From positions 1,054,001 to 1,118,000 of the forward strand of contig CANTFL010001445.1 of assembly GCA_947650285.1 (NCBI GenBank): 64,000 nucleotides of DNA, given 5' to 3'. This document shows, one piece after another, positions 9,782-61,792 of this stretch. A program made the translations under genes and the position numbers. The DNA comes from Hyaloperonospora brassicae. Its lineage: Eukaryota > Oomycota > Peronosporomycetes > Peronosporales > Peronosporaceae. Positions within the stretch are counted from its first letter, which is position 1. Every line of letters starts with the position of its first letter. The notes below the pieces were generated by a model. It was not told the origin of the DNA. It worked only from the letters and a program-made list of their open reading frames with translations, and did no database searches.

Positions 9782-9786
9782 CCCAC

Positions 9787-10231: not shown

Positions 10232-10236
10232 CCCAC

Positions 10237-11160: not shown

Positions 11161-11164
11161 TATA

Positions 11165-15619: not shown

Positions 15620-16188
15620 CCGCTCGACACACGGTACGTGTGGCGCGTCGAAGTGCGCTCAGTTAGTCGCGTCACCGGAGGAGCCAGCGAGCAATATGGG
15701 CGTCGTAAACCACGTATACGAGCGTGATCCGAAGTACTATGGCAAAGCAATGCTAAGTTCTAAAAGAGAGGACTGGAAATGGCGATGTGTTCAGAATTAA
15801 AAGAGCTCGAGAGCATCAACGTCTAACGACTTATTAAGTTTACGAGCAGCATCAATGCACTCCACACATAGTGTGTTTACAAGTTAAAGAATACTGCTGA
15901 TGGAGACGTCGAACGCCTTGAAGCGCTACGATTGACGTGCGGCAATGAGCAAGTGTTTGAAGTCGACTATGTCCTCACATTTGATGCCGTTATGGACATG
16001 CCTACTGTGAAGATAATATTGGCTCTTGAGGCATCGTATGGAGTCATCGCAAAGCATGGCGATATCCCAAACGCCTACGTCAAGGCTGAAAACGAGTCCA
16101 ATCTGGACATACTTATACATATACCAAGAGGTATAGACGTGTGCAGTGATATCATCAAGTCACTGGGAGTAACGAGCGTGAGGGAGCC
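15620..16188 (+). pseudogene. Copia-A RT, 5' half
   Basis: DPKYYGKAMLSSKREDWKW (about 15726-15782) is the usual lead-in to copia-type reverse transcriptase. KHGDIPNAYVKAE at about 16055-16090 contains the first catalytic Asp, and IHIPRGIDV follows. The frame is broken near 15790-15930. It ends exactly at the Gypsy-1 insertion. Confidence 0.8.
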
Positions 16189-16579
16189 TGTAACGGGGCA
16201 CACCCTTGCGTGAACTTAACGCAAGGGTTTCGGTGCCCCGACAGACGTACACAAGGCAAGCGAGGAAGCGTAGTTAAGGTAAAAGTAGAACTGCTATATT
16301 AATATAATTAAGTCTTTTAACTACTGTCTCTCTGTTTGACTTAACTTAATTATACTAATATAACTGAGTGTATGGTGGCGTCTCGTCATCACTCATTGCG
16401 CGCGTCTTGCGGCGATTGGTGGGTTGATATCATCAATATATCAACCAATGAACAGACCCTTTGGTCGACCCTTCAATATCACCACTATTGGTGATATTGT
16501 TCAAAGAATATTCAACTTAATATTCTTTATTGTCATTGTTCTCAAATGACAATTCAATGTAACGAGCTGCCCCGTTACA
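16189..16579 (-). repeat. Gypsy-1 3' LTR (391 bp)
   Basis: In sense orientation it runs TGTAACGGGGCAGCTCG ... GTGCCCCGTTACA. It carries the 3'-type markers shared with the Gypsy-2 3' LTR: CAGCTCG near the start, TTTGAGAACAATGAC, CACCAATAGTGG, GCACCGAAA, and AAGTTCACGC near the end. The ends are inverted (GTAACGGGG/CCCCGTTAC). A G-rich polypurine run (CAGGGGGGTGA in sense) lies just upstream. Confidence 0.93.
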
Positions 16580-16709
16580 TCACCCCCCTGAACGGATAGT
16601 CACTGTGTGACTATCGAAAATATGGAGGCCACCCGTTGGCCACCATTGAAACAGGGAGCACTGGTTGGGTCCGTTCCATTCACTTTTCGCTTGACCTCGC
16701 ATAGTTAAC

Positions 16710-17825
16710 ATGTCTATGCGGGGTGACTCAAGACCTGCACAGCCCGGTGCTGTTCCAGCCTCCGCGGCAGACGATTCGTCGTCTGCTGCTCCTTCTTCGC
16801 CTGCAGCAACAGGTGCTGCAGGTGCACGCGGTACCACACCGCGTGCGCATGATGACCTCGACGTAGAGGTCATCTACTCTGGCGAGTCAGACGTGTCTGA
16901 CTCGGGCAATGCGCCAGAGGCGTCTCGCTCACCGGCGACGCCCCAGTGTTTGCCAAGGCCACTGCCGAACGAACGGACTCGTGATTTGCATCGCAGTCTG
17001 TTCGGCAGTGATGACGATGATCAGGGTGGTGAGGAGTATTACTCCTTACCACCGCCGGCTCGTGCCCCTTCGCACGAGCGTGATGACGACGGCGTAAGCC
17101 GTCGTCAATATGGGAGCCGTGGTACCAACAAAGGTACCACTGTGAAGCTTGATGAGCTGAGGCCGTGGCGTTTGCCAGAACGGCTCATCAATAGCTTTTC
17201 TCACGAGACAAGCCAGCACCATCGAATACCCTTATTCGATGCGACTGAGCTTCACGGATTGAGTTCCAGCGCGAAGAACTTTCGCGCTGAAGAAGATTTT
17301 TATCTCGATGTCTTCATTAGACATCGATGGTACAACAGCTACCAAAAGCGTGACAAGTCCTCGCTTTCGGCTGCGTGAAACGCGTTCGTGTAAAACGTAA
17401 AGAATTTTGGACGAGAAGGGTGGCTCAAGAAACTTGAGGCGACACGCCTCAGGTTCGAAAGGCGAACGCCAACCGGTGCTAGGTACCGGTTGCATTGTTT
17501 ATCGAGTGTGGCAGGCATTCCTTGCCTCACATGGGGAGACCCTTGTGCGAGTTGTGTTGACAACTCGCAACGTGCACATAGGGATGTGTATTCCCAAAGT
17601 TCGCCCTGGGGAACTGCACACATCTTGGCTGAGATGCGTGACGCGATTGCAAACTTGCAATCCGTCTACAAGCGCCTAGGGCGCGTGTTTACCGATGGTC
17701 CTGAGGACTCATCGGATGGGTCTCGTCATACTGGCGGACGAGACCTTCAACGTCCATCAACAGCTGAGAGCAGGGCTCCCAGCTTGTTTAGGAGGGCGTG
17801 GTACCCCCGCCACTGGACGAGGTAG
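16710..17825 (+). pseudogene. Antisense ORF of Gypsy-1, N-terminal part
   Basis: A frame opposite to gag-pol, starting MSMRGDSRPAQP at 16710. Without two in-frame stops (one TGA where Gypsy-2 has Trp at about 17376, then one TAA) it would run about 371 codons to ...PRHWTR at 17825. The first ~130 residues are Ala/Ser/Pro and acidic, low complexity. They are followed by an aromatic-rich region (LRPWRLPERLINS; FRAEEDFYLDVF; RHRWYNSYQKRD) that is well conserved with Gypsy-2. I recognise no known family. The function is unknown. The stops are private to this copy, which suggests that the common ancestor was open. Confidence 0.65.
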
Positions 17826-18398
17826 CTCGTCCTTGATCCTAAATCGTCACGGTGATTCATGATACGCTCCACTAGAAAGCGTTGACCACCGTGAGCATCC
17901 ACCAAAGAATGTGAAGGAGGAGGAAAGACTCCTCCATATCGTTCTGCTCACCATCTCGACCCTTACGAGATGGATCGCGCAATAGATGAATTGCGCGATG
18001 ACTTGAAGCACGAGCGCGACCGACGCTACGCTTTGACCGACACCGTGCGGAAGAACCGCAAGGATCACGAGGCTGATCGGGCGAGGGATCGCGCCGATTA
18101 TGCCACAGCGCAGCTTCAGGTCGAGCGGGATGTCCACTCCTATTCGGCGAGCTGGCGACAGCTCGCGGGGAGATATCTCGGTTGAGTTCCGAGGTATCAT
18201 ATCTGCGCGACCAGACGGATCGTCTGGAGCGCGAACGCAAGAACTTGATGGATGTTCTTGAACGTGGGGGCTATCTTCATCGGAAGAAGAAGGCTCGTAC
18301 TGACAGTACGAACTAATACTCCCCACGTAAAACGTAGGATGCGTGCGCATCCTACGTGGCAATTCGAGTGTGTATGAATTGCCCTTGCGATGCAACAC
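17720..18398 (-). pseudogene. Gypsy-1 integrase tail and chromodomain
   Basis: After an in-frame TGA (shared with Gypsy-2) the sense frame continues VLHRKGNSYTLELP and RTHPTFYVGSIS, the C-terminal end of the integrase, then a long linker. A chromodomain fragment at about 17720-17900 corresponds to VERIMNHRDD..SRTSYLVQWRGY in Gypsy-2. Chromodomains on integrases bind modified histones and steer insertion. Frameshifted. Confidence 0.65.
17970..18315 (+). pseudogene. Antisense coiled-coil ORF of Gypsy-1
   Basis: Starts MDRAIDELRDDLKHERDRR and is rich in charged heptads (DRARDRADYATAQLQVERD), with a frameshift near 18135-18150. It then continues LSSEVSYLRDQTDRLER and ends KKARTDSTN at about 18315. 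It looks like a parallel coiled coil. It lies opposite the linker between integrase and chromodomain in the sense strand, so part of its conservation could come from the other strand. Confidence 0.5.
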
Positions 18399-19530
18399 TC
18401 AAAATGGCCCAATATACTTCGGCAGTAGTTTACTACTGCCGACACTAGTGACTGCCTGTCCAGGTAAGTTTACCGTAGACAGTAGTACTAGGTCGTTACC
18501 CTTAAATGAAAGAACATTTGCTCTTCCATTCTTGTCTGCGTTCCGTTTCTGCCGGTCCACCGCATTTGCGATGGAGTCCTGAACGAAACGGACTACCGCT
18601 TCTCGAGTCAGCAGGAAGTTCTCTGCTGACTCTTTGTTTTGTCTTTCAGTGCGCTTCGTGCGCACTGCTAAGAGATTGCTCTCTTCTTCATCGAGGTTGT
18701 CTTCTTCCTCGCTGGCATAATCGTTGACGATGCTGAATATACCAGCATCGTCATCATCATCCGAGTCAATAATAGCGTCATCGCTATTATTGAGGTGATC
18801 TTCTTCATCGATGTAGACTTGATTGACATCGGCATCATACGTGACGACGTTAGCGTCGACACGTGCTGAGCAAGAGCCAAAACGGTTTTTGCTCGAGCGA
18901 GTCCCTCCCCCCTTATCCAAGAGTCACACTCTATAAGGGTGGGCACTCGTGGATGGCGTAGGCCATTCACGTAAAACGGTGTGTGCTGTGTGGAAGCATG
19001 CACCGAATTATTGATGGCGAATTCGACCATGGGTAGGAATTCGCTCCAACTCGGAAACGAGTGGACACATCCTCGAAGGATCTCTTCGAGGACACGGTTC
19101 GCACGTTCCGTCTGACCATCTGTTTCTGGATGGTCAGAAGTGGACATCTTTAATCGTGTTCCGAGAGTACGGAACACGGTTTGCCAAAATTCCGCCGTGA
19201 ACCGAGGGTCACGGTCGGATACGAGTTCACGGGGTAACCCGTGGAGTCAAAAGACCGTGTCTAGAAAGACACGAGCACAACCTTGATCCTTGATCGACTC
19301 AGGGACAGCAGCAAGATGGACCATCTTGCTGAATCGGTCAACAAACACAAGAATACCATTATTATTGTGAGCGTCTTCGGGGAAACCGAAGACGAAGTCC
19401 ATTGAAACGGACTGCCAGCACTCTGCCGGAACAGGCAGAGGCTGCAATGGCGCACGGGATGAAGGACTAGGCTTCACCCGTTGACAAACCTCGCAAGCAC
19501 GTATGTATTTGCGGGCAAACTGATACTGGC
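18399..19530 (-). pseudogene. Gypsy-1 integrase core with acidic insert
   Basis: Zinc-binding and core fragments: SVSMDFVFGFPEDAH (first catalytic Asp), a TGA in place of an expected Arg just before LHG, then SDRDPRFTAEFW (second Asp) and DHPETDGQTERANRVLEE (Glu). An unusual acidic stretch (DSDDDDDAGIF, SEEEDNLDEEES) lies at about 18670-18830, before the C-terminal SH3-like part. Two frame changes make it non-functional as it stands. Confidence 0.8.
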
Positions 19531-19534
19531 GTGG

Positions 19535-21774
19535 TCAGTAAAAGTCACGACTTACCGTGAGGTAAGTCTTTTCTCTCCCACGATGGCCGCTTGTTAGGGC
19601 ATCGTGACACTCATACATGATGCGCAAACGCAAATCATGATGAGCGGGTACGACGACACGAGGTGTGTCGTCGGCAACAGCTGTATAATACAGCAATCCG
19701 TTGCGTGTACTATACCGATCCGATGAGGATCGGTACAAAGCCGGTAAATTCCGCATGGATTTACTGGATGGATTCACCAGATGATCCATCAATCGCAGAA
19801 GATCCTTATCTTCCGCGTATGACTGTCGTACGTTGTCAAGTAAACTTGACGACGGGACACTGACTGACAGTGTCGCAACAGTGGGCTTATCCTCACTGTT
19901 GATTTGTGCGTCCGGCTCGAAATCGGGCCGGCGCGAAAGAGCATCAGCGACGACATTGAGTCGTCCTGGTTCATACTCCACGGAGAAGTTATACTCCGCG
20001 AAGAAAGACAGCCACCTTGCCATCCTTTGCGAGAGATGTGGGCTGTTTACGGCCGTCCGTAATAGTGCATGGTCCGTATAGACGATGAACGGTCTATCTC
20101 CCAAGAGATAGACCCGGAACTTAGCCAGTGCGTACTTCATGGCAAGGAGTTCCTTGTCATGCACTGGTTAATTACGCTCAGCTGCTTGCAGCTGACGCGA
20201 CTGATAACAGATGACGCGCTCCGCGCCATCTGCATCGAACTGCATTAACGCACAGCCGATTGCAAAATCGCTAGCGTCACAGACCACATGAAATGGTCTG
20301 TCCTGATCTGCAAACGCCAAGATCGGCGATTGCATCAAGATTTGCTTGATACCTTCAAAGGAACGCTGGCACTCAGCGTTCCATGACCACTTGACATTTT
20401 TCTTGAGCAAGCAAGAAAGATGAACAGTCATCTTGGCGTAGTTGCGCGAGTACTTGTGCAAGTACGCCGCTAGTCCAAGGAACTTCCTTAGTCCCTTGAC
20501 ATCGACTGGCACTGTACAGTCGGTGATCGCCTTAATCTTTTCGGAATCAGGGCGTACGCCGTGTTTACCCACGATGCACCCAAGAAGTGGTATTTCGCTA
20601 GCCGCGAATATACACTTCTCGAGGTTGGCATACAACTTATGCTTGCTCATAAGTTGAAGAACCTGACGAACGTGAGTTCTGTGAACTTCAACGTCCGTCT
20701 TTCCGTCCATAGCCCGGCTATGGACGAACACATCGTCGAAGTAACTCGGTGCGAAGTCTCGCACCGGTCTCAACAGATTTGTACTACATCTGTTGATATT
20801 ACAGGGGCGTTACTCAGCCCCTGTGGCATCACTAGCCACTCCCACAGCATCCCGCTGGGGGTACTCACTGCCGTGAACGGGACGTCCCGTTCACGCATCA
20901 GGATCTGATAGAATCCATCCATCAGATCCATGGACGAAAAGATGGTACTCTTTGACATACCATCTATGATTACGTCCTTCCTCGGTATCGGCGTCTGAGC
21001 CGGTACCGTTGCAGCATTCAACTTGCTGATAGCGTGCACTATCCGCCATCCTCCTGTGGCCTTTCGCACACAGAAGGTCGGAGAGCTGTGAGGGGATGTT
21101 GATTCCCTGACATGGCCCGCTGCTAAGCGATCGGCAAATAACTTGTCGATCGCTAGTACTTGTTCACGAGGCAGTGGCCACTGCTTCATGACACAGTATT
21201 TCGAGCCCGGTTTGAGCTCGATCTCGTGTCGAGTGCCTTTGTCCTTAGGCAATTCGCAAGGTACGGATTCAGGGAACACATCCCTGAATTCGATCAGATC
21301 TTTATACAAAGGATTTTCCTGAAGTGACTTCCAGGATTGAGACGTGTATCGCTCAATCCGAGTCTTCTCATCGAGGAAACTTTCGTCCATCGATGAGCTG
21401 CTGAGAACCCGTTCGTTCTCAGCAAATACTGTAGCCGACCGAATATCGGCCACATATTCATCCTCTGTGAAGAGTATGCAGATCTGCTTGACTTTGCCAC
21501 TACGCAGATCACGCAAGAACCGTTTCGGTTCTAGCGTTGGCAACTGAGTTATCTCCGAAGTTGACTTCGGAGGCACAATCAGATCAAGCGTATAAGCGCC
21601 TACGCTTGATCCGTCACTAACCAAGACGTTCAACGTCTCGGTTTCTTCCTGGGAACTTTCTTCCACAGGTTGCTGAGGGCTTGATCCCTCATCAAGTGAC
21701 TCTTGAGGAATTCCTTCCTCAAGTACGTGGGGACTTATTCCCTCGACGTCTTCCGACTGTGGCTGTGCAACCAC
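19535..21774 (-). pseudogene. Gypsy-1 reverse transcriptase and RNase H
   Basis: The first frame (21774-20770, 334 codons) has a Glu/Ser-rich leader, the RT lead-in KDKGTRHEIELKPG and FSSMDLMDGFYQI (first RT Asp), but shifts frame after MPQGLSNA. The second (20773-20168) has SYFDDVFVHS (catalytic YFDD), the thumb and the start of RNase H (VVCDASDFAIGCAL). The third (20164-19535) continues RNase H (HDKELLAMKYAL, VYTDH) and the HHCC region (SGHRGREKTYLTV). It ends at a TGA where Trp is expected. Confidence 0.85.
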
Positions 21775-22026
21775 AGTCAGGCACCGATCCTCTACGGTCG
21801 ACTCTCCAGTCGACCTCGGATGTCCATGTTGCTCTTAGGAGGCAACAGGTTTCTTTTGTCTAAGATGCTGCCCGCTAGGCATGCATCCATGTCCCGGTCC
21901 ACTCGACTTATTCGAGTGTTGGACCTTCGGCGCCGCATGTACCTCTGTACAGCCGCCGGGAGCTTTCTCCACAGTGTAGTGATCAACTACACTGTGATCT
22001 TGTGCAGTCGTGCTAACGACCGTACC

Positions 22027-22640
22027 TCAAGTGAGGCCATCGCACTCACTCGAAGAACATCCACACGCTTGTGGACGCTCCAAGATGTTCATCAGATGGC
22101 CATATGATGAACAAGCGGCAGGCATCTTCACGGATCGATGCTGCCAGCTTACCCTTGGCTCGTACTTTCTGAGCCAAGTTAATCCCAGGATGACATCAAA
22201 TTTGTCATTCAGATCTAGTACGATGAAGTCATCATCGTACTGTTCGCCCTCTAACGTGTAGTGCATTCCTACTACACGTTTCTCAACAATTATCGATGCG
22301 CCTGTTGCAAGGCGCACCGTCATCCTTGTGAGGGGAATGTCGCGCTCAACGAACTTGAGCCTACGACCCTCTAGTGACTGGCGTCAAACAAAGTTTTTCG
22401 ACGCCCCACAGTCTACTAGGGCACTAAGCGACAAATCATTTGTCGCTTCCAACTTCAAGGTGATGAGCGAAACTTCATCACCAGGTGCAGAGACACACAA
22501 TGATTGTGTATCTGGAGCAACTTTCGTCAAGAGATTTGCGAATTCTGTTGAGGTTGCTGGATCAGTAGGGCGCTCCGCCCCTACTGACCCGACCATTTTT
22601 TGATGGTCCGTCTCGCTGTTGCGGCTTCGCAGCAGCACAT
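22027..22640 (-). pseudogene. Gypsy-1 protease
   Basis: Contains LSALVDCGASKNFV. D-C-G-A stands where most retroelement proteases have D-S/T-G-A. A TGA follows (Gypsy-2 has CGA, Arg). The fold continues with RMTVRLATGA and FDVILGLTWLRKYEP (flap and second half). Needed to cleave the polyprotein in an active copy. Confidence 0.75.
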
Positions 22641-23736
22641 GTACCCACGCCCATTGCTCTTTCTGGCAAATGGTCGTCCATTTTGCTCAGTACTGTTTGG
22701 TACTGGGCGTGGAGCACTACACACATATGCATATTGCCCTAACTTCTGACAGCGATTGCATCTCTGCATTTGCTTGTTGTTCGAAGAGCGAGGTCTCTCG
22801 CTCTCAACATAGCAGAGGTCCATTGGTTCTGGACCTCCGATCTCTTGTCGCCTCGGTGGACGATAAGCGTTTGAGCTAGCATGAGCCTGTCTCATGCTAA
22901 AGTCTTCCTGTTCCGCGGCTGATATCTCTTCTTCCAGCGTATTCAGCTCAAGGCGGAACAGGTGGCTCCTGACGGGCCCCTCTGCGAGCCCTTGCATGAA
23001 CACCGTAATCAACGTGTGTTCATGGACTGGGTTGGCAGTTATACTACTCGCAAGGAGTCGTATATGTTGTGCGTAAGCGTGGACTTCACGCTTACCCTGC
23101 TTGAGTTTCAGGAGCTCTGAACGAGCCCTGAACTCAGCCCGTGGCGGCTCAAACGTTTGTCTGATCCGGGCCTTGAAGTCATCTAGCGACCTAAATGCAT
23201 TTTGGGTCGCTACTCTCGAGTCCCAGAAACCAAGTTTTGGCTTGCCCTGCCAAGTGGGTCTGAGCAAATGTGAGTTTCATTTGATCATCTTCGACGCGAC
23301 GAGCCCTTAGGGCTCTGTCGAGTTCGACAAACCACAGTAACAGGGAGTCCTCCGGGACTCCATTGTACTTGGAGATGTCAACTTTCATGGCCTCGGGACG
23401 CCTCGCATGCGCCGTCCCGCCCACAGCAGCATGGAATTGCTGCTGTCTCAACAGCTCTGTCTGTTGAGCACCGAGTTCTCTCAACTGCTCGGCCTGTTGA
23501 GAGCCTTGCTGGTGAAGCAAGGCTACTTTCTCCCTCTCGATGGCAAGTTCATTTTGAACGAACTTGGCTATAGCGGCATGTTGTTGGTCTCTGTCTAGAG
23601 ACTCCAACATGGCGCTAATGGCGAACTCGCCTACGGTAGAACTCATTCGTTCTACCGCACCCCATTCGATGTCACTCAAATGGGTAAACCCTTCACGCGT
23701 GGCGTGAAAGGTGTCTTCTTCATCCAACATGTTCAT
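22581..23736 (-). pseudogene. Gypsy-1 gag
   Basis: Two overlapping frames: 23736-23191 (begins MNMLDEEDTFHATREG, coiled-coil-like Gln/Glu-rich part) and 23267-22581 (capsid-like DFKARIRQTFEPPRAEF and EHTLITVFMQGL, then the zinc knuckle). The frame change is at CCCAAAAT (about 23199-23209) and is present identically in Gypsy-2. The zinc knuckle reads CNRCQKLGQYAYVC, with Gln in the place of the usual His; this too is shared. Confidence 0.85.
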
Positions 23737-23780
23737 GTTGGATGATGTGGTCCTTGGAAGGACTACAAAGTGCTACCAGG

Positions 23781-24173
23781 TGTAACGGGGCACACCCTTG
23801 CGTAACTTAACGCAAGGGTTTTAAGTGCTCCGACAGACGTACACGTGGCAAGCGAGGAAGCGTAGGTAGGGTAAAAGCAGAACTGTTATATTAATATAAT
23901 TAAGTCTTTTAACTACTGTCTCTCTGTTTGACTTAACTTAATTATACTAATATAACTGAGTGTATGATGACGTCTCGTCACCACTCATTGCGCGCGTCTT
24001 GCGGCGATGGGTGGGTTGATGTCATTAAGATATCAACCAATGAACAGACTCTTTGGTCGACCCTTCAATATCACCACTTTGGTGATATTGTTCAAAGAAT
24101 ATTCAACTTAATATTCTTTATTGTCAATATCTCTTCAAAGGACAATTTCAATGTAACGGGCTGCCCCGTTACA
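23781..24173 (-). repeat. Gypsy-1 5' LTR (393 bp)
   Basis: In sense: TGTAACGGGGCAGCCCG ... GCAAGGGTGTGCCCCGTTACA. It has the 5'-type markers also found in the Gypsy-2 5' LTR and the 36.9-kb solo LTR: CAGCCCG and AAGTTACGC, with CACCAAAGTGG in the two gypsy copies. Immediately inside is TGGTAGCACTTTG, a possible tRNA primer site. Confidence 0.93.
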
Positions 24174-25305
24174 GAGCCGGCGTTGCAGCTTCGCAAGAAT
24201 TTGTTCGGCCTTAACCAGGACGGGAGGCTCTGGAGTCAATTGCTTCATGCACGGCTTATTGACGCTAGTTACCAGTAGTGCGTGTCGGATATGTGCTTAT
24301 ACTCACAGAAGGATGGGAGGGACCTCGTGATTGTCGGGGTCTACGTTGACGACCTGATAGCTATTGGTTCGGACGTGGCAGAAGTCGACCGTTTCTTTGC
24401 GAGTCTAGGCATTCAATCTATTAAGAACCTAGGGGCAGTCAATAAGTTCCTAATAATGCGAGTGGAGACCTAGATCAACGAAGGTTAAATACCGACATGG
24501 AAAATGCAATCAACGACATTCTGAAAGAGCATGATCTCGACGACGTAAACTCAACGCGAACTACCATTGGTGCGGATTGCTACGCGACCCCGACAACAGC
24601 CAGCATTCTTCTTGTTGATGTAGACGGAGGAGCTCCAAGCATTCAAGGCTTCCAGTCGCTCGTCGTCCGTCTTCTTTGGGTGTCGAGATGTACGCGGCAA
24701 GACATTGAGTTTGCCGTCCACAAGGCGACACGACAGACGCACCAGCCTCAAATCCATGACTACAAGCTCGCTAACCGTATCGAGCGGTACTTGAAGGTTA
24801 CCTGCAGCCTAAAGCTGCGCATGACATCAGCGCCGTGTACGCGAAAGACATAAAACTTGGAGTCATACTCAGACGCGGACTTTGCTGCTGATAAGCTGGA
24901 TCGGATGTCGTTTACAGGAAGGGTCATACTCTTGAACTGCATGGCGGTGCGTTGGACGACCAAGAAACAAGGCGACGTATCTCTATCCACCATGGAAGCC
25001 GAATTCGTTGCCGCTTCGGAGCAAACGCGTGAGTTACCTGTAATTCACGATTGGAATGCCGCCCGGACTGCCGATGATGCTGTACATCGACAATCAAGCT
25101 GCGATCAAGCAGCTGGATGGCGAGGCATCCTCTTTGAAAGCCAAACACATCAATGTGCGGCTCAAGTTTTCGCGGGAGTACTCACGAAGCGGGGTTTTAT
25201 CGGCGCAGTACGTCAGGTCTGAAGCCCAGATTGATGACCTAATGACGAAAGTCATGTATGCGGTCAAGCTTGCGTCCGTGTGCAAGTTAATGGGCCCCGG
25301 GTAGC
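24174..25305 (+). pseudogene. Copia-A RT 3' half and RNase H
   Basis: Resumes the RT exactly where Gypsy-1 interrupted it: LRKNLFGLNQDGRLW, then VGVYVDDLIAIGSD (catalytic YVDD, about 24336-24377). RNase H follows at 24857-25060: SYSDADFAADKLDR and STMEAEFVAASEQ. The tail IDNQAAIKQLDGE and AQIDDLMTK runs to about 25300. Stops at 24276 and elsewhere. The 3' end is unclear; GGAATATTGCACGTGGG near 25368 could be the start of its 3' LTR. Confidence 0.85.
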
Positions 25306-36931: not shown

Positions 36932-37321
36932 TGTAACGGGGCAGCCCGTTACATAATATTGTCACTTAAGGAAAGTGACAATAAAGAATATAAAGATGGA
37001 TATTCTTTAAACAATATCACCGAAGCGGTGATATTGAAGGGTCGACCAGAAGGGTCTGTTCATTGGTTGATATCGTGATGATATCAACCCACCAATCGCC
37101 GCAAGACGCGCGCAATGAGTGGTGACGAGACGTCACCATACATGCAGTTATATTAGTATAATTGAATTAAGTCAAACGAAGAGACAGTAGTTTAAAGACT
37201 TAATTTATTAATATAACAGTTCTACTTTTACCCTACCTACGCTTCCTCGCTCGCCACGTGTACGTCCGTCGGGGCACCCAAATCCCTTGCGTTAAGTTAC
37301 GCAAGGGTGTGCCCCGTTACA
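36932..37321 (+). repeat. Solo gypsy LTR inside the LINE
   Basis: 390 bp, TGTAACGGGGCAGCCCG ... GTGTGCCCCGTTACA, with a perfect target duplication CCTAT (36927-36931 and 37322-37326). Belongs to the Gypsy-1/2 family, with 5'-type markers (CAGCCCG, AAGTTACGC). Its inner hairpin reads CACCGAAGCGGTG where the gypsy copies have CACCAAAGTGGTG, a paired change. Confidence 0.95.
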
Positions 37322-53800: not shown

Positions 53801-53806
53801 AATATC

Positions 53807-54196
53807 TGTAACGGGGCAGCCCGTTACATAAAATTGTCACTTTAAGGAAAGTGACAATAAAGAATATGAAGTTGGATATTCTTTGAACAATATCACCAAA
53901 GTGGCGATATTGAAGGGTCGACCAAAGAGTCTGTTCATTGGTTGATATCGTGATGATATCAACCCACCAATCGCCGCAAGACGCGCGCAATGAGTGGTGA
54001 CGAGACGTCACCATACACCCAGTTATATTAGTATAGTTAAGCTAAGTCAAACAGAGAGACAGTGGTTAAAGACTTTATTATATTAATATAACAGTTCTGC
54101 TTTTACCCTACCTACGCTTCCTCGCTTGCCACGTGTACGTCTGTCGGGGCACTTGAAACCCTTGCGTTAAGTTACGCAAGGGTGTGCCCCGTTACA
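53807..54196 (+). repeat. Gypsy-2 5' LTR (390 bp)
   Basis: TGTAACGGGGCAGCCCG ... GTGTGCCCCGTTACA. 5'-type markers (CAGCCCG, CACCAAAGTGG, GCACTTGAAA, AAGTTACGC). Strong hairpins at 53808-53827 (GTAACGGGGCAGCCCGTTAC) and at about 53834-53855 (TGTCACTTT-aagg-AAAGTGACA). Confidence 0.95.
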
Positions 54197-54198
54197 CC

Positions 54199-54212
54199 TG
54201 GTAGCACTTTGT
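54199..54212 (+). promoter_or_regulatory. Possible Gypsy-2 primer site
   Basis: TGGTAGCACTTTGT begins two bases after the LTR. TGG is the usual complement of a tRNA 3' CCA end. The tRNA is not identified. Gypsy-1 has the same sequence. Confidence 0.45.
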
Positions 54213-54240
54213 AGTCCTTCCAAGGACCACGTCATCCAAC

Positions 54241-55396
54241 ATGAACATGTTGGATGAAGAAGACACCTTTCACGCCACGCGTGAAGGGTTTACCCATTTG
54301 AGTGACATCGAATTGGGTGCGGTAGAACGAATGAGTTCTGCCGTAGGCGAGTTCGCCATTAGCGCCATGTTGGAGTCTCTAGACAGAGACCAACAACATG
54401 CCGCTATAGCCAAGTTCATTCAAAATGAACTTGCCATCGAGAGGGAGAAAGTAGCCTTGCTTCACCAGCAAGGCTCTCAACAGGCCGAGCAGTTGAGAGA
54501 ACTCGGTGCTCAACAGACAGAGCTGTTGAGACAGCAGCAATTCCATGCTGCTGTGGGCGGGACGGCGCATGCGAGGCGTCCCGAGGTCATGAAAGTTGAC
54601 ATCTCCAAGTACAGTGGAGTCCCGGAGGACTCCCTGTTACTGTGGTTTGTCGAACTCGACAGAGCCCTAAGGGCTCGTCGCGTCGAAGATGATCAAATGA
54701 AACTCACATTTGCTCAGACCCACTTGGCAGGGCGTGCCAAAACTTGGTTTCTGGGACTCGAGAGTAGCGACCCAAAATGCGTTTAGGTCGCTAGATGACT
54801 TCAAGGCCCGGCTCAGACAAACGTTTGAGCCGCCACGGGCTGAGTTCAGGGCTCGTTCAGAGCTCCTGAAACTCAAGCAGGGTAAGCGTGAAGTCCACGC
54901 TTACGCACAACATATACGACTCCTTGCGAGTAGTATAACTGCCAACCCAGTCCATGAACACACGTTGATTACGGTGTTCATGCAAGGGCTCGCAGAGGGG
55001 CCCGTCAGGAGCCACCTGTTCCGCCTTGAGCTGAATACGCTGGAAGAAGAGATATCAGCCGCGGAACAGGAAGACTTTAGCATGAGACAGGCTCATGCTA
55101 GCTCAAACGCTTATCGTCCACCGAGGCGACAAGAGATCGGAGGTCCAGAACCAATGGAACTCTGCTATGTTGAGAGCGAGAGACCTCGCTCTTCGAACAA
55201 CAAGCAAATGCAGAGGTGCAATCGCTGTCAGAAGTTAGGGCAATATGCATATGTGTGTAGTGCTCCACGCCCAGTACCAAACAGTACTGAGCGAAATGGA
55301 CGACCATTTGCCAGAAAGGGCAATAGGCGTGGGTACATGTGCTGCTGCGAAGCCGCAACAGCGAGACGGACCATCAAAAAATGGTCGGGTCAGTAG
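54241..55396 (+). pseudogene. Gypsy-2 gag, in two frames
   Basis: 54241-54786 (MNMLDEEDTFHATREG; long Gln/Glu-rich helix with HQQGSQQAEQLRELGAQQ) and 54710-55396 (DFKARLRQTFEPPRAEF, EHTLITVFMQGLAEGP, zinc knuckle CNRCQKLGQYAYVC at about 55217-55258, His replaced by Gln). The +1 frame change at GACCCAAAATGC (54769-54780) is the same as in Gypsy-1: either a defect of the parent or a programmed shift inside the capsid part, which would be unusual. Confidence 0.85.
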
Positions 55397-55980
55397 GGGC
55401 GGAGCGCCCTACTGATCCAGCAACCTCAACAGAATTCGCAAATCTCTTGACGAAAGTTGCTCCAGATACACAATCATTGTGTGTCTCTGCACCCGGTGAT
55501 GAAGTTTCGCTCATCACCTTGAAGTTGGAAGCGACAAATGATTTGTCGCTTAGTGCCCTAGTAGAGTGTGGGGCGTCGAAAAACTTTGTTCGACGCCAGT
55601 CACTAGAGGGTCATAGGCTCAAGTTCGATGAACGCGACATTCCCCTCACGAGGATGACGGTGCGCCTTGCAACAGGCGCATCGATTACTGTTGAGAAACG
55701 TGTAGTAGGAATCCACTAAACGTTAGAAGGCGAACAGTACGATGATGTCTTCATCGTACTGGATATGAATGACAAATATGATGTCATCCTGGGATTAACT
55801 TGGCCCAGAAAGTACGAGCCAAGAGTGAGATGGCAGCATTGATCCGTGAAGATGCCTACCGCTTGTTCATCATATGGCCATCTGATGAACATCTTGGAGC
55901 GTCCACAAGCGTGTGGATGTTCTTCGAGTGAGTGCGATGGCCTCACTTGAGGTACGGTCGTTAGCACGACTGCACAAGAT
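55339..55980 (+). pseudogene. Gypsy-2 protease
   Basis: LSALVECGASKNFV: the catalytic Asp seen in Gypsy-1 (DCGAS) is Glu here, which should abolish cleavage. The frame goes on to VEKRVVGIH, then TAA where Gypsy-1 has TAC (Tyr). The second half, DDVFIVLDMNDKYDVILGLTW, is readable after the stop. Confidence 0.8.
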
Positions 55981-56004
55981 CACAGTGTAGTTGATCACTA
56001 CACT

Positions 56005-58439
56005 GTGGAGAAAGCTCCCGGCGGCTGTACAGAGGTACATGCGGCGCCGAAGGTCCAACACTCGAATAAGTCGAGTGGACTGGGGCATGGATGCATGCCT
56101 AGCGGGCAGAATCTTAGACAAAAGAAACCTGTTGCCTCCAAAGAGCAACATGGACATCCGAGGTCGACTGGAGAGTCGACCGTAGAGGATCGGTGCCTGA
56201 CTGTGGTTGCACAGCCACAGTTGGAAGACGTCGAGGGAATAAGTCCCCACGTACTTGAGGAAGGAATTCCTCAAGAGTCACTTGATGAGGGATCAGGCCC
56301 TCAGCAACCTGTGGAAGAAAGTTCCCAGGAAGAAACCGAGACGTTGAACGTCTTGGTTAGTGACGGATCAAGCGTAGGCGCTTATACGCTTGATCTGATT
56401 GTGCCTCCGAAGTCAACTTCGGAGATAACTCAGTTGCCAACGCTAGAACCGAAACGGTTCTTGCGTGATCTGCGTAGTGGCAAAGTCAATCCGATCTGCA
56501 TACTCGTCATGGAGGATGAGTATGTGGCCGATATTCGGTCGGCTACAGTATTTGCTGAGAACGAACGGGTTCTCAGCAGCTCATCGATGGACGAAAGTGT
56601 CCTCGATGAGAAGACTCGGATTGAGCGATACACGTCTAAATCCTGGGAGTCGCTCCAGTCATATCCTTTGTATAAGGATTTGATTGAATTCAAGGACGTG
56701 TTCCCTGAATCCGTACCTTGCGAGTTGCCTAAGGACAAAGGCACTCGACACGAGATCGAGCTCAAACCGGGCTCGAAGTACTGTGTCATGAAGCAGTGGC
56801 CACTGCCTCGTGAACAAGTACTAGCGATCGACAAGTTCTTTGCCGATCGCTTAGCAGCGGGCCATGTCAGGGAATCAACATCCCCCCACAGCTCTCCGAC
56901 TTCTGTGTGCGAAAGGCCACAGGAGGATGGCGGATAGTGCACGCATTCAACAAATTGAATGCTGCAACGGTACCAACTCAGACGCCGATACCGAGGAAGC
57001 ACGTAATCATAGATGGTATGTGAAAGAGTACCATCTTCTCGTCCATGGATCTGATGGATGGATTCTATCAGATCCTCATGCGTAAACGGGACATCCCGTA
57101 CACAGCAGTGAGCACTCCCAGCGGTATTTTTCGAGAGTGGCTAGTGATGCCTCAGGGTCTGAGCAACGCCTCTGCAACATTCAACAGATGTGTCATCAAT
57201 GTGTTGAGACCGATGCGAGATCTCGCACCGAGTTACTTCGACGATGTGTTCGTCCATAGCCGGGCTATAAACGGAAAGACGGACGTTGAAGTTCACAGAA
57301 CTCACGTTCTCCAAGTCCTTCAACTTATGAGCAAGCATGTGTTGTATGCCAACCTCAAGAAGTGTATATTCGCGGCTAGCGTAATACCACTTCTTGGGTG
57401 CATCGTGGGTAAACACGGCGTACGCCCTGATTCCGAAAAGATTAAGGCGATCACCGACTGTACAGTGCCAGTCGATGTCAAGGGACTAAGGAAGTTCCTT
57501 GGACTAGCGGCGTACTTGCACAAGTACTCGCGCAACTACGCCAAGATGACTGTTCATCTTTCTTGCTTGCTCAAGAAAAATGTCAAGTGGTCATGGAACG
57601 CTGAGTGCCAGCGTTCCTTTGAAGGTATCAAGCAAAGCTTGATGCAATCGCCGATCTTGGCGTTTGCAGATCAGTACAGACCATTTCATGTGGTCTGTGA
57701 CGCTAGCGATTTTGCAATCGACTGTGCGTTAATGCAGTTCGATGCAGATGGCGCGGAGCGCGTCATCTGTTATCAGTCGCGTCAGCTGCAATCAGCTGAG
57801 CGTAATTACCCAGTGCATGACAAGGAACTCCTTGCCATGAAGTACGCACTGGCTAAGTTTCGCGTCTATCTCTTGGGAGATAGACCGTTCATCGTCTATA
57901 CGGACCATGCGTCATTACGCACGGCCGTAAACAGCCCACACCTCTCGCAAAGGATGGCGAGGTGGCTGTCTTTCTTCGCGGAGTATAACTTCTCCGTGGA
58001 GTATAAACCAGGACGACTCAATATCGTCGCTGATGCTCTTTCGCGCCGGCCCGATTTCGAGCCGGACGCACAAATCAACAGTGAGGATAAGCCCACTGTT
58101 GCGACACTGTCAGTCAGTGTCCCGTCGTCAAGTTTACTTGACAACGTACGACAGTCATACGCGGAGGATAAGGATCTTCTGCGATTGATGGATCATCTGG
58201 TGAATCCATCCAGTAAATCCATGCGGAATATACCGGCTTTGTACCGATCCTCATCGGATCGGTATAGTACACGCAACGGATTGCTGTATTATACAGCTGT
58301 TGCCGACGACACACCTCGTGTCGTCGTACCCGCTCATCATGATTTGCGTTTGCGCATCATGTATGAGTGTCACGATGCCCTAACAAGCGGCCATCGTGGG
58401 AGAGAAAAGACTTACCTCACGGTAAGTCGTGACTTTTAA
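56005..58439 (+). pseudogene. Gypsy-2 reverse transcriptase and RNase H
   Basis: 56005-56937: leader with a Glu/Ser-rich stretch, then KDKGTRHEIELKPGSKYCVM and the RT start. One base is missing near 56900 relative to Gypsy-1 and shifts the frame. 57045-58439 (464 codons): MDLMDGFYQIL (first Asp region), YFDD at residues 64-67, thumb through LAAYLHKYSRNYAK, RNase H with D219, E261 and D287, then HHCC residues (SGHRGREKTYL) and TAA. The catalytic residues remain in this second frame. Confidence 0.88.
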
Positions 58440-59580
58440 AGGCCCCGCCAGTATCAGTTTGTTCGCAAGTACATACGTGCTTGCGAGGTTTGCCAACGAA
58501 TGAAGCCTAGTCCTTCATCCCGTGCGCCATTGCAGCCTCTGCCTGTTCCGGCAGAGTGCTGGCAGTCCGTTTCAATGGACTTCGTCTTCGGTTTCCCCGA
58601 AGACGCTCACAATAATAATGGTATTCTTGTGTTTGTTGACCGATTCAGCAAGATGGTCCATCTTGCTGCTGTCCCTGAGTCGATCAAGGATCAAGGTTGT
58701 GCTCGTGTCTTTCTAGACACGGTCTTTTGACTCCACGGGTTACCCCGTGAACTCGTATCCGACCGTGACCCTCGGTTCACGGCGGAATTTTGGCAAACCG
58801 TGTTCCGTACTCTCGGAACACGATTAAAGATGTCCACTTCTGACCATCCAGAAACAGATGGTCAGACGGAACGTGCGAACCGTGTCCTCGAAGAGATCCT
58901 TCGAGGATATGTCCACTCGTTTCCGAGTTGGAGCGAATTCCTACCCATGGTCGAATTCGCCATCAATAATTCGGTGCATGCTTCCACACAGCACACACCG
59001 TTTTACGTGAATGGCCTACGCCATCCACGAGTGCCCACCCTTATAGAGTGTGACTCTTGGATAAGGGGGGAGGGACTCGCTCGAGCAAAAACCGTTTTGG
59101 CTCTTGCTCAGCACGTGTCGACGCTAACGTCGTCACGTATGATGCCGATGTCAATCAAGTCGACATCGATGAAGAAGATCACCTCAATAATAGCGATGAC
59201 GCTATTATTGACTCGGATGATGATGACGATGCTGGTATATTCAGCATCGTCAACGATTATGCCAGCGAGGAAGAAGACAACCTCGATGAAGAAGAGAGCA
59301 ATCTCTTAGCAGTGCGCACGAAGCGCACTGAAAGACAAAACAAAGAGTCAGCAGAGAACTTCCTGCTGACTCGAGAAGCGGTAGTCCGTTTCGTTCAGGA
59401 CTCCATCGCAAATGCGGTGGACCGGCAGAAACGGAACGCAGACAAGAATGGAAGAGCAAATGTTCTTTCATTTAAGGGTAACGACCTAGTACTACTGTCT
59501 ACGGTAAACTTACCTGGACAGGCAGTCACTAGTGTCGGCAGTAGTAAACTATTGCCGAAGTATATTGGGCCATTTTGAGT
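58440..59580 (+). pseudogene. Gypsy-2 integrase with acidic insert
   Basis: RACEVCQRMKPSPSS (zinc-binding end), SVSMDFVFGFPED (Asp), RFSKMVHLAAVPES, then TGA before LHGLPRELVSDRDPRF (Asp) and PETDGQTERANRVLEEIL (Glu). Frame change to 59057-59578, which holds about 60 residues rich in Asp/Glu (NNSDDAIIDSDDDDDAGIF; YASEEEDNLDEEES), then FVQDSIANAVDRQKRNADK and GNDLVLLSTVNLPG. It ends F-TGA; Gypsy-1 has the same TGA. An acidic insert in this place is not usual for gypsy integrases. Confidence 0.85.
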
Positions 59581-60290
59581 GTTGCATCGCAAGGGCAATT
59601 CATACACACTCGAATTGCCACGTAGGATGCGCACGCATCCTACGTTTTACGTGGGGAGTATTAGTTCGTACTGTCAGTACGAGCCTTCTTCTTCCGATGA
59701 AGATAGCCCCCACGTTCAAGAACATCCATCAAGTTCTTGCGTTTGCGCTCCAGACGATCCGTCTGGTCGCGCAGATATGATACCTCGGAACTCAACCGAG
59801 ATATCTCCCCGCGAGCTGTCGCCAGCTCGCCGAATAGGGAGTGGACATCCCGCTCGACCTGAAGCTGCGCTGTGGCATAATCGGCGCGATCCCTAGCCCG
59901 ATCAGCCTCGTGATCCTCGCGGTTCTTCCGCACGGTATCAGTCAAAGCGTAGCGCCGGTCGCGCTCGTGCTTCAAGTCATCGCGCAATTCATCGATTGCG
60001 CGATCCATCTCGTAAGGGTCGAGAAGGTGAGCAGAACGATATAGAGGAGGTCTTTCCTCCTCCTTCACATTCTTTGGTGGATGCTCACGGTGGTCAACGC
60101 TTTCAAGTGGAGCGTATCATGAATCACCGTGACGATTCAGGATCAAGGACGAGCTACCTCGTCCAGTGGCGGGGGTACCACGCCCTCCTATACAAGCTGG
60201 GAGCCCCGCTCTCAGCTGTTGATGGACGTTGAAGGTCTCGTCCGCCAGTATGACGAGACTCATCCGATAGGTCCTCGGGCCCATCGGTAA
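59581..60290 (+). pseudogene. Gypsy-2 integrase tail and chromodomain
   Basis: VLHRKGNSYTLELP, RTHPTFYVGSIS, then a ~150-codon linker with stops, then GGQRFQVERIMNHRDDS and SRTSYLVQWRGY (about 60090-60180). With a frame change, SWEPRSQLLMDVEGLV and QYDETHPI follow. The order (VERI..HR....YLV.WRGY..SWEP) is a chromodomain, as in chromoviruses. Inferred role: targeting insertion to marked chromatin. Confidence 0.75.
59661..60068 (-). CDS. Antisense coiled-coil ORF of Gypsy-2 (135 codons)
   Basis: Opens MKEEERPPLYRSAHLLDPYE, then long charged heptads: DELRDDLKHERDRRYALTD, DRARDRADYATAQLQVERD, EISRLSSEVSYLRDQTDRLE. It ends KKARTDSTN. It reads as a parallel coiled coil with a basic C-terminus. 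Intact here, frameshifted in Gypsy-1. It lies opposite the integrase-chromodomain linker, where the sense frame itself has stops. It may be the end of the longer antisense gene (60171-61266), joined by a splice or a frame change. Coding status is not proven. Confidence 0.5.
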   Translation of the reverse strand: MKEEERPPLYRSAHLLDPYEMDRAIDELRDDLKHERDRRYALTDTVRKNREDHEADRARDRADYATAQLQVERDVHSLFGELATARGEISRLSSEVSYLRDQTDRLERKRKNLMDVLERGGYLHRKKKARTDSTN

Positions 60291-61266
60291 ACACGCGCCC
60301 TAGGCGCTTGTAGACGGATTGCAAGTTTGCAATCGCGTCACGCATCTCAGCCGAGATGTGTGCAGTTCCCCAGGGCGAACTTTGGAATTACACATCCCTA
60401 TGTGCACGCTGCGAGTTGTCAACACAACTCGCACAAGGGTCTCCCCATGTGAGGCAAGGATTGACTGCCACACTCGATAAACAATGCAACCGGTACCTAG
60501 CACCGGTTGGCGTTCGCCTTTCGAACCTGAGGCGTGTCGCCTCAAGTTTCTTGAGCCACCCTTCTCGTCCAAAATTCTTTACGTTTTGGACGAACGCGTT
60601 CCACGCAGCCAAAAGCGATGTTTTGTCACGCTTTTGGTAGCTGTTGTACCATCGATGTCTAAGAAAGACATCGAGATAAAAATCTTCTTCAGCGCGAAAG
60701 TTCTTCGCGCTGGAACTCAATCCGTGAAGCTCAGTCGCATCGAATAAGGGTATTCGATGGTGCTGGCTTGTCTCGTGAGACAAGCTATTGATGAGCCGTT
60801 CGGGCAAACGCCACGGCCTCAGCTCATCACGCTTCACAGTGGTACCTTTGTAGGTACCACGATTGTCAGTATGACGATGGGTTGCACCATCGTCAAGTCG
60901 CTCATGCGAAGGAGCACGAGCTGATTGCGGTGATGAGCAAACATACTCATCACCCGATTCGTCATCACTACCAAACAGACTGTGTTGCAACTCACGATTC
61001 CGTTCGTTCGGCAGTGGCCTTGGCAAACACCGAGGCGTCGCCGGTGAGCGAGACGCCTCTGGCGCATTGCCCGAGTCAGACACGTCTGACTCGCCAGAGT
61101 AGATGACCTCTACATCAGGGTCATCATGCGCACGCGGTGAGGTGCCGCGTTCACCTGCAGCACCTGTTGCTGCAGGCGGAGAAGGGGCAGCAGACGACGA
61201 ATCGTCTGCCGCAGAGGCTGGCACAGTAGTGGGCTGTGTAGGTCTTGAGTCACCCCGCATAGACAT
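60154..61266 (-). pseudogene. Antisense ORF of Gypsy-2, N-terminal and middle part
   Basis: The frame 61266-60388 (292 codons) starts MSMRGDSRPTQPTTVP, with an Ala/Ser/Pro-rich acidic N-terminal part (ADDSSSAAPSPPAATG; VEVIYSGESDVSDSG). A conserved region follows: LRPWRLPERLINSLSHETSQ, FRAEEDFYLDVFLRHRWYN and WNAFVQNVKNFGREGWLKKL. A TAA where Gypsy-1 has TAT (Tyr) ends it. Beyond the stop the same frame continues EMRDAIANLQSVYKRLGRV to ...PRHWTR (60154), as in Gypsy-1. The start lies ~130 bp inside the 3' LTR, in opposite orientation to gag-pol. No known family. The two copies have different stops, so the ancestor was probably a ~371-codon gene. Confidence 0.65.
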
Positions 61267-61385
61267 GTTACCTATGCGAGGTCAAGCGGAAAGTGAATGG
61301 AAAGGACCCATCAAGTGCTCCCTGTCCCAATGGTGGCCAACGGGTGGCCTCCATATTTTCGATAGTCACACAGTGACTATCCGTT

Positions 61386-61395
61386 CAGGGGGTGA
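61386..61395 (+). promoter_or_regulatory. Gypsy-2 polypurine tract
   Basis: CAGGGGGTGA, touching the 3' LTR. Expected primer for plus-strand DNA synthesis. Gypsy-1 has the same with one more G. Confidence 0.6.
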
Positions 61396-61787
61396 TGCAA
61401 CGGGGCAGCTCGTTACATTGAATTGTCATTTGAGAACAATGACAATACCGAATATTAAGTTGAATATTCTTTGAACAATATCACCAATAGTGGTGATATT
61501 GAAGGGTCGACCAAAGAGTCTGTTCATTGGTTGATATCGTGATGATATCAACCCACCAATCGCCGCAAGACGCGCGCAATGAGTGGTGACGAGACGTCAC
61601 CATACACCCAGTTATATTAGTATAATTAAGTTAAGTCAAACAGAGAGACAGTAGTTAAAAGACTTTATTATATTAATATATCAGTTCTGCTTTTACCCTA
61701 CCTACGCTTCTTCGTTGGCCACGCGTACGTCTGTCGGGGCACCGAAAACCCTTGCGTTAAGTTCACGCAAGGGAGTGCCCCGTTACA
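61396..61787 (+). repeat. Gypsy-2 3' LTR (392 bp)
   Basis: TGCAACGGGGCAGCTCG (TGT to TGC at the start) ... GAGTGCCCCGTTACA. 3'-type markers shared with the Gypsy-1 3' LTR: CAGCTCG, TTTGAGAACAATGAC, CACCAATAGTGG, GCACCGAAA, AAGTTCACGC. Roughly 25-30 differences from its own 5' LTR by eye. Confidence 0.94.
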
Positions 61788-61792
61788 ATATC

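What the first reader, a model, noticed from the sequence alone, without database searches (positions are those of the whole stretch)
53807..61787. A gypsy family built almost wholly of short hairpins
Seen directly: in Gypsy-2 (and Gypsy-1) a short inverted repeat with a 2-10 base loop occurs every few tens of bases, in the LTRs, gag, pol, the acidic insert and the antisense ORF. Examples: 53808 GTAACGGGGCAGCCCGTTAC; 55531 GCGACAAATGATTTGTCGC; 56405 CTCCGAAGTCAACTTCGGAG; 58103 GACACTGTCAGTCAGTGTC; 58127 GTCAAGTTTACTTGAC; 58409 GACTTACCTCACGGTAAGTC; 58648 GCAAGATGGTCCATCTTGC; 59188 AATAGCGATGACGCTATT; 61073 GAGTCAGACACGTCTGACTC. Copia-B, Copia-C, the LINE and the spacers do not show it by eye. 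Arms of 7-10 bases at this density in coding DNA are far beyond chance. Possible causes (inference): selection for RNA structure (packaging, RT pausing, escape from or entry to RNA silencing), or a mutational process in which template switching turns near-palindromes into perfect ones during replication or reverse transcription.
Basis: seen in the sequence. Interest (0 to 1): 0.9.

Follow-up and report, generated by a model that had tools for sequence, protein, structure and literature searches.

The report
Retrotransposon family saturated with perfect hairpins
A high-copy family of jumping genes carries a short, perfectly paired hairpin about every 55 bases along its whole length; the pattern looks less like selection for folded RNA than like a copying habit that keeps rewriting one half of each hairpin to match the other.

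Summary
Confirmed and strong. Gypsy-2 holds 113 perfect inverted repeats (arm >=7, loop 0-12) against 6.0 +- 3.2 in dinucleotide shuffles. A copy with long open frames holds 145; its pol ORF has 72 against 3.8 +- 1.8 in codon-preserving shuffles. The trait belongs to one chromodomain Ty3/Gypsy clade and is graded: family A 17.9 per kb of pol, sister families 8.4 and 4.5; other elements tested lie at or near chance. Density is even over LTR, gag, pol and 3' region.

Selection on RNA folding fits badly: in stems, G-T mismatches are about as rare as A-C, the excess is confined to loops under about 16, and both strands fold alike. Four loops are exactly inverted between copies; the inverted forms occupy 10, 2, 20 and 53 genomic places, as template switching leaves. 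Best explanation (0.55, inferred): reverse transcription in this clade repeatedly 'perfects' near-palindromes. Selection for strand-symmetric DNA hairpins stays open. Arm rewriting itself was not caught: 6 of 1653 difference clusters are templated, all loop inversions.

The parts
53802..53806 (.). left target-site duplication ATATC of Gypsy-2
53807..54196 (+). 5' LTR of Gypsy-2 (TG...CA), itself full of hairpins
   Evidence: identity to the 3' LTR 92.6%
54205..55396 (+). gag, in two frames (54205-54786, 54701-55396); Retrotrans_gag hit in the second
55951..59578 (+). pol in broken pieces (55951-56937, 57024-58439, 58440-58730, 58731-59309, 59054-59578). RT, RNase H and integrase zinc-binding hits in 57045-58439; the zinc-binding domain goes on, below cut-off, in 58440-58730; no hit in 56005-56937, 58731-59309 and 59057-59578. 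The acidic run is in 59054-59578 (by eye)
59579..60232 (+). Tf2-1-like SH3 (59579-59896, below cut-off) and chromodomain (59897-60232, over cut-off) pieces
60388..61281 (-). antisense ORF, 297 codons stop to stop in this copy, 540 in L036; no Pfam hit over cut-off; 18 inverted repeats v 1.04 in codon shuffles
61396..61787 (+). 3' LTR of Gypsy-2
61788..61792 (.). right target-site duplication ATATC
54232..54257 (+). hairpin e4; loop GAAC here, inverted (GTTC, 2 differences) in L037; inverted form in 53 genomic places
58583..58605 (+). hairpin site e3; in L036, L039 and L033 the loop is TTT, inverted to AAA (3 differences) in L040; inverted form in 20 genomic places. Gypsy-2's own inner bases differ slightly
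59979..60004 (+). hairpin e2; central bases inverted (4 differences) in L040; inverted form in 2 genomic places; perfect arms in 672 places
61190..61209 (+). hairpin e1; loop ACGAAT here, ACGAAG in L038 and L040, inverted CTTCGT (6 differences from ACGAAG) in L037; inverted form in 10 genomic places; perfect arms in 664 places
16189..24173 (-). Gypsy-1, second copy on the minus strand, 96% identical, LTRs 23781-24173 and 16189-16579, TSD GAGCC (16184-16188, 24174-24178)
36932..37321 (+). solo LTR of the same family with TSD CCTAT and LTR hairpins
   Evidence: read by eye

Best explanation
Gypsy-1/2 belong to a high-copy chromodomain Ty3/Gypsy family (family A; single hairpins of it found in 664 and 672 places) whose whole genome, LTRs included, has become a string of short perfect hairpins. 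Shown: the excess, its restriction to one retroelement clade among those sampled, its evenness, the lack of a marked G-U preference, its lower level in most older copies, loop inversions carried by several copies, and some double changes that keep pairing. Inferred: the cause is a copying process tied to the element's own reverse transcription. When the growing strand stalls at a near-palindrome it switches template (to its own arm or to the complementary strand) for a few bases and back; this makes the arms perfectly complementary and now and then flips the loop. Each round of retrotransposition would restore pairing lost to point mutation, so live lineages stay near-perfect, while inserted copies, replicated only by the host, lose it. 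Protein selection removes some unfit outcomes. The hairpins would then be a by-product (a drive), not a selected RNA fold.
For: (1) Strand symmetry. Stem mismatches G-T v A-C: 12 v 14 (Gypsy-2); 8 v 11, 2 v 0, 0 v 1 in the open-frame copies L036, L030, L028; outer, inner and internal mismatches of these three together 94 v 89; one-sided changes at L036 stems in eight other copies 153 v 185 (summed by hand); shared broken types in 15 copies 66 v 88. Were G-U favoured five to one, 10 or fewer of 22 would have p = 5.6e-5. Both strands fold well. (2) Loop inversions: 4 events (6, 4, 3, 2 differences, exact reverse complement) among 1110 interior pairs, with the arms unchanged; the inverted forms sit in 10, 2, 20 and 53 genomic places, source copies included. 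(3) Short loops: the excess ends at loops of about 16 (longer loops were not set against shuffles). (4) Even density: LTR 20.5, gag part 19.2, pol 17.9, 3' region 17.2 per kb. (5) Clade limit: family A, then L030, then L028; twelve loci outside their group at 0.2-1.5 per kb around the RT. (6) Age: 18.2 and 17.4 per kb in the two copies with LTR identity >=99.7%, 13.6-15.0 in the other five with an LTR value. (7) Hairpins keep their centre through sequence change: L028 v L030 share 6 (of 16 and 21; chance 0.20) at 70% nucleotide identity, a few through amino-acid-changing double changes. Template switching is a published route to such stems and loop inversions (PMC8794818, abstract and passages read).
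Against: Arm rewriting was not caught: of 1653 distinct clusters of >=3 differences 6 match the reverse complement of the partner copy nearby, and all 6 are loop inversions (3 events). Of 28 centres with a double change, 25 have just one, explicable by two single substitutions; of the 3 with more, two lie at LTR or locus edges where the alignment is doubtful. Column pairs with both Watson-Crick types in two or more copies each: 5, no more than slid controls (1-5). No loop inversion was found in the sister families' pol pieces (35 interior pairs). Between families, the pairing excess among doubly changed cells has p<0.08 in 5 of 9 comparisons, two of them with the hairpin-poor L032, so it does not need living hairpins. 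Wobble is not wholly even: L036 alone has 69 v 54, and one-sided cells between families are 195 v 155, the tilt lying in the three comparisons with L032 (78 v 44; without them 117 v 111, summed by hand). In L036 pol, hairpins avoid the codon phase costliest for protein (30/13/29, p = 0.02; 26/9/27 with another stem definition), as selection at silent sites would also give; L030 shows none of it (16/14/15). L038 (LTR identity 98.7%) has only 14.4 per kb, as low as older copies. Loop inversion may follow from having hairpins and need not be their cause. No enzyme was tested.
Confidence: 0.55

Rival explanations
1. Selection for DNA-level hairpins or cruciforms (or for hairpins in both strands, e.g. 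sense and antisense RNA or cDNA) maintains each stem; loop inversions are secondary accidents of existing hairpins.
For: Strand symmetry and perfect Watson-Crick stems are also what selection on double-stranded DNA or on both strands predicts; some stems persist at the same centres in sister families; codon-phase bias in L036 pol.
Against: About 1160 base pairs in 121 stems per element would each need effective selection against single mismatches, while amino acids under some stems change; density is even over parts of very different function; stems and loops differ in sequence from hairpin to hairpin (lists; no motif search was run) and spacing is irregular (mean 55, sd 35 bases).
Confidence: 0.22
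2. Genome-scale ordered RNA structure: selection for folded genomic RNA (packaging, stability, evasion of or entry to RNA silencing).
For: Very low folding energy along the whole element; double changes that keep pairing; codon-phase bias in L036 pol; a slight, non-significant G-T surplus in L036 (69 v 54).
Against: No marked preference for G-U over A-C; three pair positions show C-A 22 v T-G 0, C-A 4 v T-G 2 and A-C 12 v G-T 3 among the roughly 100 places listed for each (hand counted); the excess lies in tiny hairpins; the antisense strand folds nearly as well; inherited loop inversions have no place in it.
Confidence: 0.12
3. Ordinary template switching in host DNA replication acts on all sequence and these elements merely show it.
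For: Template switching in DNA replication is documented (PMC8794818).
Against: Copia pieces and spacers in the window and other elements of the genome are at or near chance; most older copies, exposed to host replication longest, have fewer hairpins.
Confidence: 0.03
4. Chance, base composition, codon usage or assembly artefact.
For: None found.
Against: Dinucleotide and codon-preserving shuffles; single hairpins with perfect arms in 664 and 672 places.
Confidence: 0.01

Closest known systems
Template-switch mutations that create and maintain hairpins (Monttinen and Loytynoja 2022, PMC8794818; abstract and passages read)
   Same: Perfect stems, double changes that keep pairing, exact loop inversions.
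   Different: Described for RNA genes and DNA replication; here a whole LTR retrotransposon, coding and non-coding, about 18 hairpins per kb, tied to a retroelement clade. 'reverse transcript' and 'retro' have no occurrence in that paper's main text.
Genome-scale ordered RNA structure of RNA viruses (recalled; only a search listing was seen)
   Same: Folding energy lowered along the whole genome.
   Different: Excess in short local hairpins, about 40% lower energy, no marked G-U preference, strand-symmetric.
Ty3 genomic RNA mapped by SHAPE-MaP (PMC11381356; abstract and passages read)
   Same: Ty3/Gypsy element with structured genomic RNA; a short palindrome used for dimerisation.
   Different: Ty3 has a well-folded core of about 19.4% of the RNA; the passages read describe no uniform chain of perfect hairpins.
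Small loop inversions in plastid hairpins (search listing only; details recalled)
   Same: Loops between short inverted repeats flip.
   Different: Organelle DNA, scattered hairpins, not a retroelement.
Quasi-palindrome correction and snap-back synthesis by polymerases and reverse transcriptases (recalled)
   Same: Proposed mechanism.
   Different: Recalled from reporter hot spots and in vitro cDNA, not as a force shaping a whole element.

Membership tests
Ty3/Gypsy LTR retrotransposon, chromodomain type | LTRs with TG...CA ends and short target-site duplication | tested here: met
   5-base duplications in Gypsy-2 (ATATC), Gypsy-1 (GAGCC), L036 (GTGGG)
Ty3/Gypsy LTR retrotransposon, chromodomain type | gag with CCHC knuckle; protease, RT, RNase H, integrase in that order | tested here: met
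   L036 ORFs: Retrotrans_gag over cut-off, zf-CCHC below cut-off (over it in L030), RVP_2, RVT_1, RT_RNaseH, Integrase_H2C2, rve over cut-off
Ty3/Gypsy LTR retrotransposon, chromodomain type | chromodomain after the integrase | tested here: met
   PF00385 over cut-off in window 59897-60232 and L036:6784-8016 and in L030
Genome-scale ordered RNA structure | folding energy well below shuffles along the whole sequence | tested here: met
   37 of 39 windows with z < -2 on the + strand, 38 of 39 on the - strand
Genome-scale ordered RNA structure | RNA-type pairing: G-U accepted more than A-C | tested here: not met
   a tilt to G-T only in comparisons with hairpin-poor L032
Template-switch mutation footprints | exact loop inversion between related copies | tested here: met
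   4 events; none in 35 pairs of the sister families
Template-switch mutation footprints | multi-base one-step double changes or rewritten arms | tested here: not met
   3 of 28 centres have >=2 double changes, two of them doubtful; no rewritten arm among 1653 clusters
Template-switch mutation footprints | process acts during reverse transcription | not testable with these tools
   needs cDNA or new-insertion sequencing

The most novel reading that the evidence does not exclude
A clade of chromodomain Gypsy elements encodes a reverse-transcription machinery so prone to short strand switches at near-palindromes that it drives its own genome, protein-coding sequence included, to an equilibrium in which a third of all bases sit in perfect hairpins: a mutational drive that rewrites proteins and is undone only by point mutation after insertion.
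Probability: 0.48. Interest if true: 0.9.

Novelty: new variant of a known kind. Interest (0 to 1): 0.76.

Why it matters
If the drive reading holds, a polymerase's habit alone can impose genome-wide secondary structure and steer protein sequence: a warning for inferences of functional RNA structure from folding energy, which is extreme here although the G-U test speaks against an RNA fold. The family gives a natural laboratory of hundreds of copies in which creation, flipping and decay of hairpins can be counted, which bears on the long-open question of how perfect stems arise. If instead the hairpins are selected, an element that keeps some 120 DNA-level hairpins would be just as unexpected.

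Tried and rejected
Rejected: chance, composition and codon usage; host-wide template switching; plain RNA-structure selection (wobble counts). A fifth loop-inversion site (the 56405 hairpin) was dropped, because the intermediate GTTAAC explains both forms by single substitutions. A first inversion scan was wrong: loci L002, L004, L006, L007 lay on the other strand and L033 holds an inverted neighbouring fragment; redone. Arm-rewriting scan: 6 of 1653, inversions only. Compensatory excess between families: weak. Amino-acid identity is lower in loops and arms than outside (e.g. L036 v L032: loops 39/71, arms 59/106 and 65/106, outside 324/498), which does not separate drive from tolerance. The antisense proteins have no Pfam hit over cut-off. 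One viral-contig scan found no relative. Rfam found nothing in the window. Loci L021 and L023 show very high counts in single kilobases that were not examined; L021 holds 100 and L023 1301 N, and N was counted as pairing with N in that script (not). In print: nine answered paper searches showed no hairpin-saturated retrotransposon among the rows listed; several lists were cut, and that library holds no preprints and few subscription journals.
Full report
WHAT IS THERE. Gypsy-2 (53807-61787, TSD ATATC) and Gypsy-1 (16189-24173, minus strand, TSD GAGCC) are 96% identical copies of one LTR retrotransposon family. Both have short, interrupted frames. Another copy in the genome, L036 (LTR identity 99.7%, TSD GTGGG), keeps long frames: gag 396 codons, pol 1339 codons, a sense frame of 411 codons with SH3 and chromodomain hits, and an antisense ORF of 540 codons. 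The family is thus a chromodomain Ty3/Gypsy. Single hairpins of it occur with perfect arms in 664 and 672 places of the 100.6-Mb assembly, so copy number is in the high hundreds.

THE EXCESS. With arm >=7 and loop 0-12, Gypsy-2 has 113 perfect inverted repeats against 6.0 +- 3.2, L036 145. With protein and codon usage kept, L036 pol has 72 against 3.77 +- 1.78 and its antisense ORF 31 against 2.05; all six Gypsy-2 pieces exceed every one of 200 shuffles, two Copia pieces do not. Folding energy is 41% and 36% below shuffles on the two strands, 1-2% in three controls. Mirror repeats: 9. The excess is confined to loops below about 16 (longer loops were not set against shuffles) and is even over LTR, gag, pol and 3' part. 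Spacing is irregular (mean 55, sd 35 bases).

A CLADE TRAIT WITH A GRADIENT. Twenty loci were cut around RT hits (of 150 scored) and their RT pieces put in a tree. Family A (five rows) and the sister pair L028/L030 are hairpin-rich: in the main ORF 72, 26 and 45 repeats against codon-shuffle means of 3.8, 4.3 and 5.8. L032, about equally distant from both (60-62% amino-acid identity), has 8 against 4.05 +- 1.83 (maximum 9), within the shuffle range, though 17 inverted against 6 mirror repeats over the whole element. Three further Gypsy-like loci (L026, L027, L034) and nine loci whose RTs look non-LTR (labels recalled from motif and tree, no call names them) have 0.2-1.5 per kb in a 4-kb core; by codon shuffles a few are mildly above the mean (L027 6 v 2.2, L031 11 v 5.9, L025 7 v 3.3), none above the maximum. 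Support for the A and L028/L030 forks is moderate (88/97 and 91/98), and the place of L032 is unresolved. The process therefore belongs to this clade, not to the host.

LIVE COPIES ARE NEAR-PERFECT, MOST OLD COPIES ERODE. The two copies with LTR identity 99.7-100% have 18.2 and 17.4 hairpins per kb; five with 87-98.7% have 13.6-15.0, among them L038 at 98.7% with 14.4; L033 and L040 gave no LTR value. In L036, 121 non-overlapping stems hold 1159 Watson-Crick pairs and 25 internal mismatches by a method that favours perfect stems. Something seems to restore pairing in the replicating lineage and to stop after insertion.

NOT AN RNA FOLD. A stem selected in the coding-strand RNA should accept G-U far more than A-C. 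Counts of G-T v A-C: Gypsy-2 12 v 14; L036 8 v 11, L030 2 v 0, L028 0 v 1; outer, inner and internal mismatches of the three 94 v 89, p = 0.77, L036 alone 69 v 54; one-sided changes at L036 stems in eight other copies 153 v 185; broken pair types shared by at least two of 15 copies 66 v 88, cells 543 v 603. Between families, one-sided cells are 195 v 155 over nine overlapping comparisons, 117 v 111 without the three that involve hairpin-poor L032. With a five-to-one preference, 10 or fewer of 22 has p = 5.6e-5. At three single pairs, the roughly 100 listed of 395, 538 and 490 places gave, by hand count, T-A 78, C-A 22, T-G 0, C-G 0; T-A 54, C-G 40, C-A 4, T-G 2; G-C 69, A-T 16, A-C 12, G-T 3. 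These pairs were picked because they vary, and one lineage can weigh heavily; they only show that A-C is not the rarer intermediate.

TEMPLATE-SWITCH FOOTPRINTS. Among 1110 pairs of same-length interiors bounded by identical arms, nine rows are exact reverse complements; they collapse to five sites, one of which was dropped. The four left differ by 6, 4, 3 and 2 bases with arms intact; the last is the weakest. The inverted forms, with one flank fixed to tell orientation, match exactly in 10, 2, 20 and 53 places, source copies included, so they were spread by retrotransposition; e1 and e4 occur on two flank variants, hinting at repeated flips, recombination or later substitution. In the pol pieces of the sister families (35 interior pairs) none was found.

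EVOLUTION OF STEMS. Between L028 and L030 (70% nucleotide identity in 2.6 kb of pol), 6 hairpins share a centre against 0.20 expected; A shares 3 with each (0.56 and 0.36 expected). Some keep pairing through double changes that alter amino acids, e.g. R/K at the SWPTP site and F/L at the HFA/HLA site. In 15 copies of family A, 81 of 1619 stem column pairs show two Watson-Crick types, against 17-36 in slid controls, but only 5 have each type in two or more copies (slid 1-5). Between families the pairing excess among doubly changed cells ranges from p = 0.008 to 0.85 over nine comparisons.

MECHANISM. The likeliest account is perfecting of near-palindromes by short template switches during reverse transcription, a drive balanced by point mutation and protein selection. 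About 2% of stem pairs are mismatched in L036, so restoration could be up to some fifty times commoner than breakage per pair (inference; the stem finder favours perfect stems). Against it, no rewritten arm was seen among 1653 difference clusters, and most double changes are single (25 of 28), which short conversion tracts or two-step substitution under selection would both give. Selection for strand-symmetric DNA hairpins stays open. I put the drive at 0.55.

KNOWN GROUND. Template switching as maker and keeper of stems, with loop inversions, is published for RNA genes (PMC8794818: abstract and passages). Ty3 genomic RNA has a folded core of about 19.4% (PMC11381356: abstract and passages). 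Nine answered searches of the open-access library showed nothing on a hairpin-saturated retrotransposon among the rows listed.

Noticed in passing
window 36932-37321: Solo LTR of the same family with target-site duplication CCTAT; by eye its hairpin CAATATCACCG/CGGTGATATTG differs from L036 by an A-T to G-C double change.
   Followed up: partly
window 60388-61281 (-); L036:7394-9013 (-); L030:7450-8844 (-); L028:7401-8915 (-); L032:1245-2660 (+, antisense to that element): Antisense ORFs of 465-540 codons between pol and 3' LTR in four related families; by BLASTP only the L028 and L030 proteins are recognisably alike (43%); L036 has weak coiled-coil-type hits below cut-off. Role unknown.
   Followed up: partly
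L028:945-9901: An L028-type element sits inside a family-A copy, so the moderately hairpin-rich family moved after that copy was in place.
   Followed up: no
L033: A mosaic copy: one part is 91% and another 97% identical to L036, and an inverted fragment of the family lies beside it.
   Followed up: no
L040, first part of the element (about 2513-3600): The gag part of L040 is far more diverged from family A than its pol, yet has a hairpin of its own; perhaps recombination with another lineage.
   Followed up: no
window 25907-30148: The Copia ORF has slightly fewer inverted repeats than its shuffles (1 v 2.5-3.0); may be chance.
   Followed up: no
window 1-12000: AT-rich stretch with a modest excess of inverted repeats (22 v 9.6, max 17 of 20 shuffles).
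   Followed up: no
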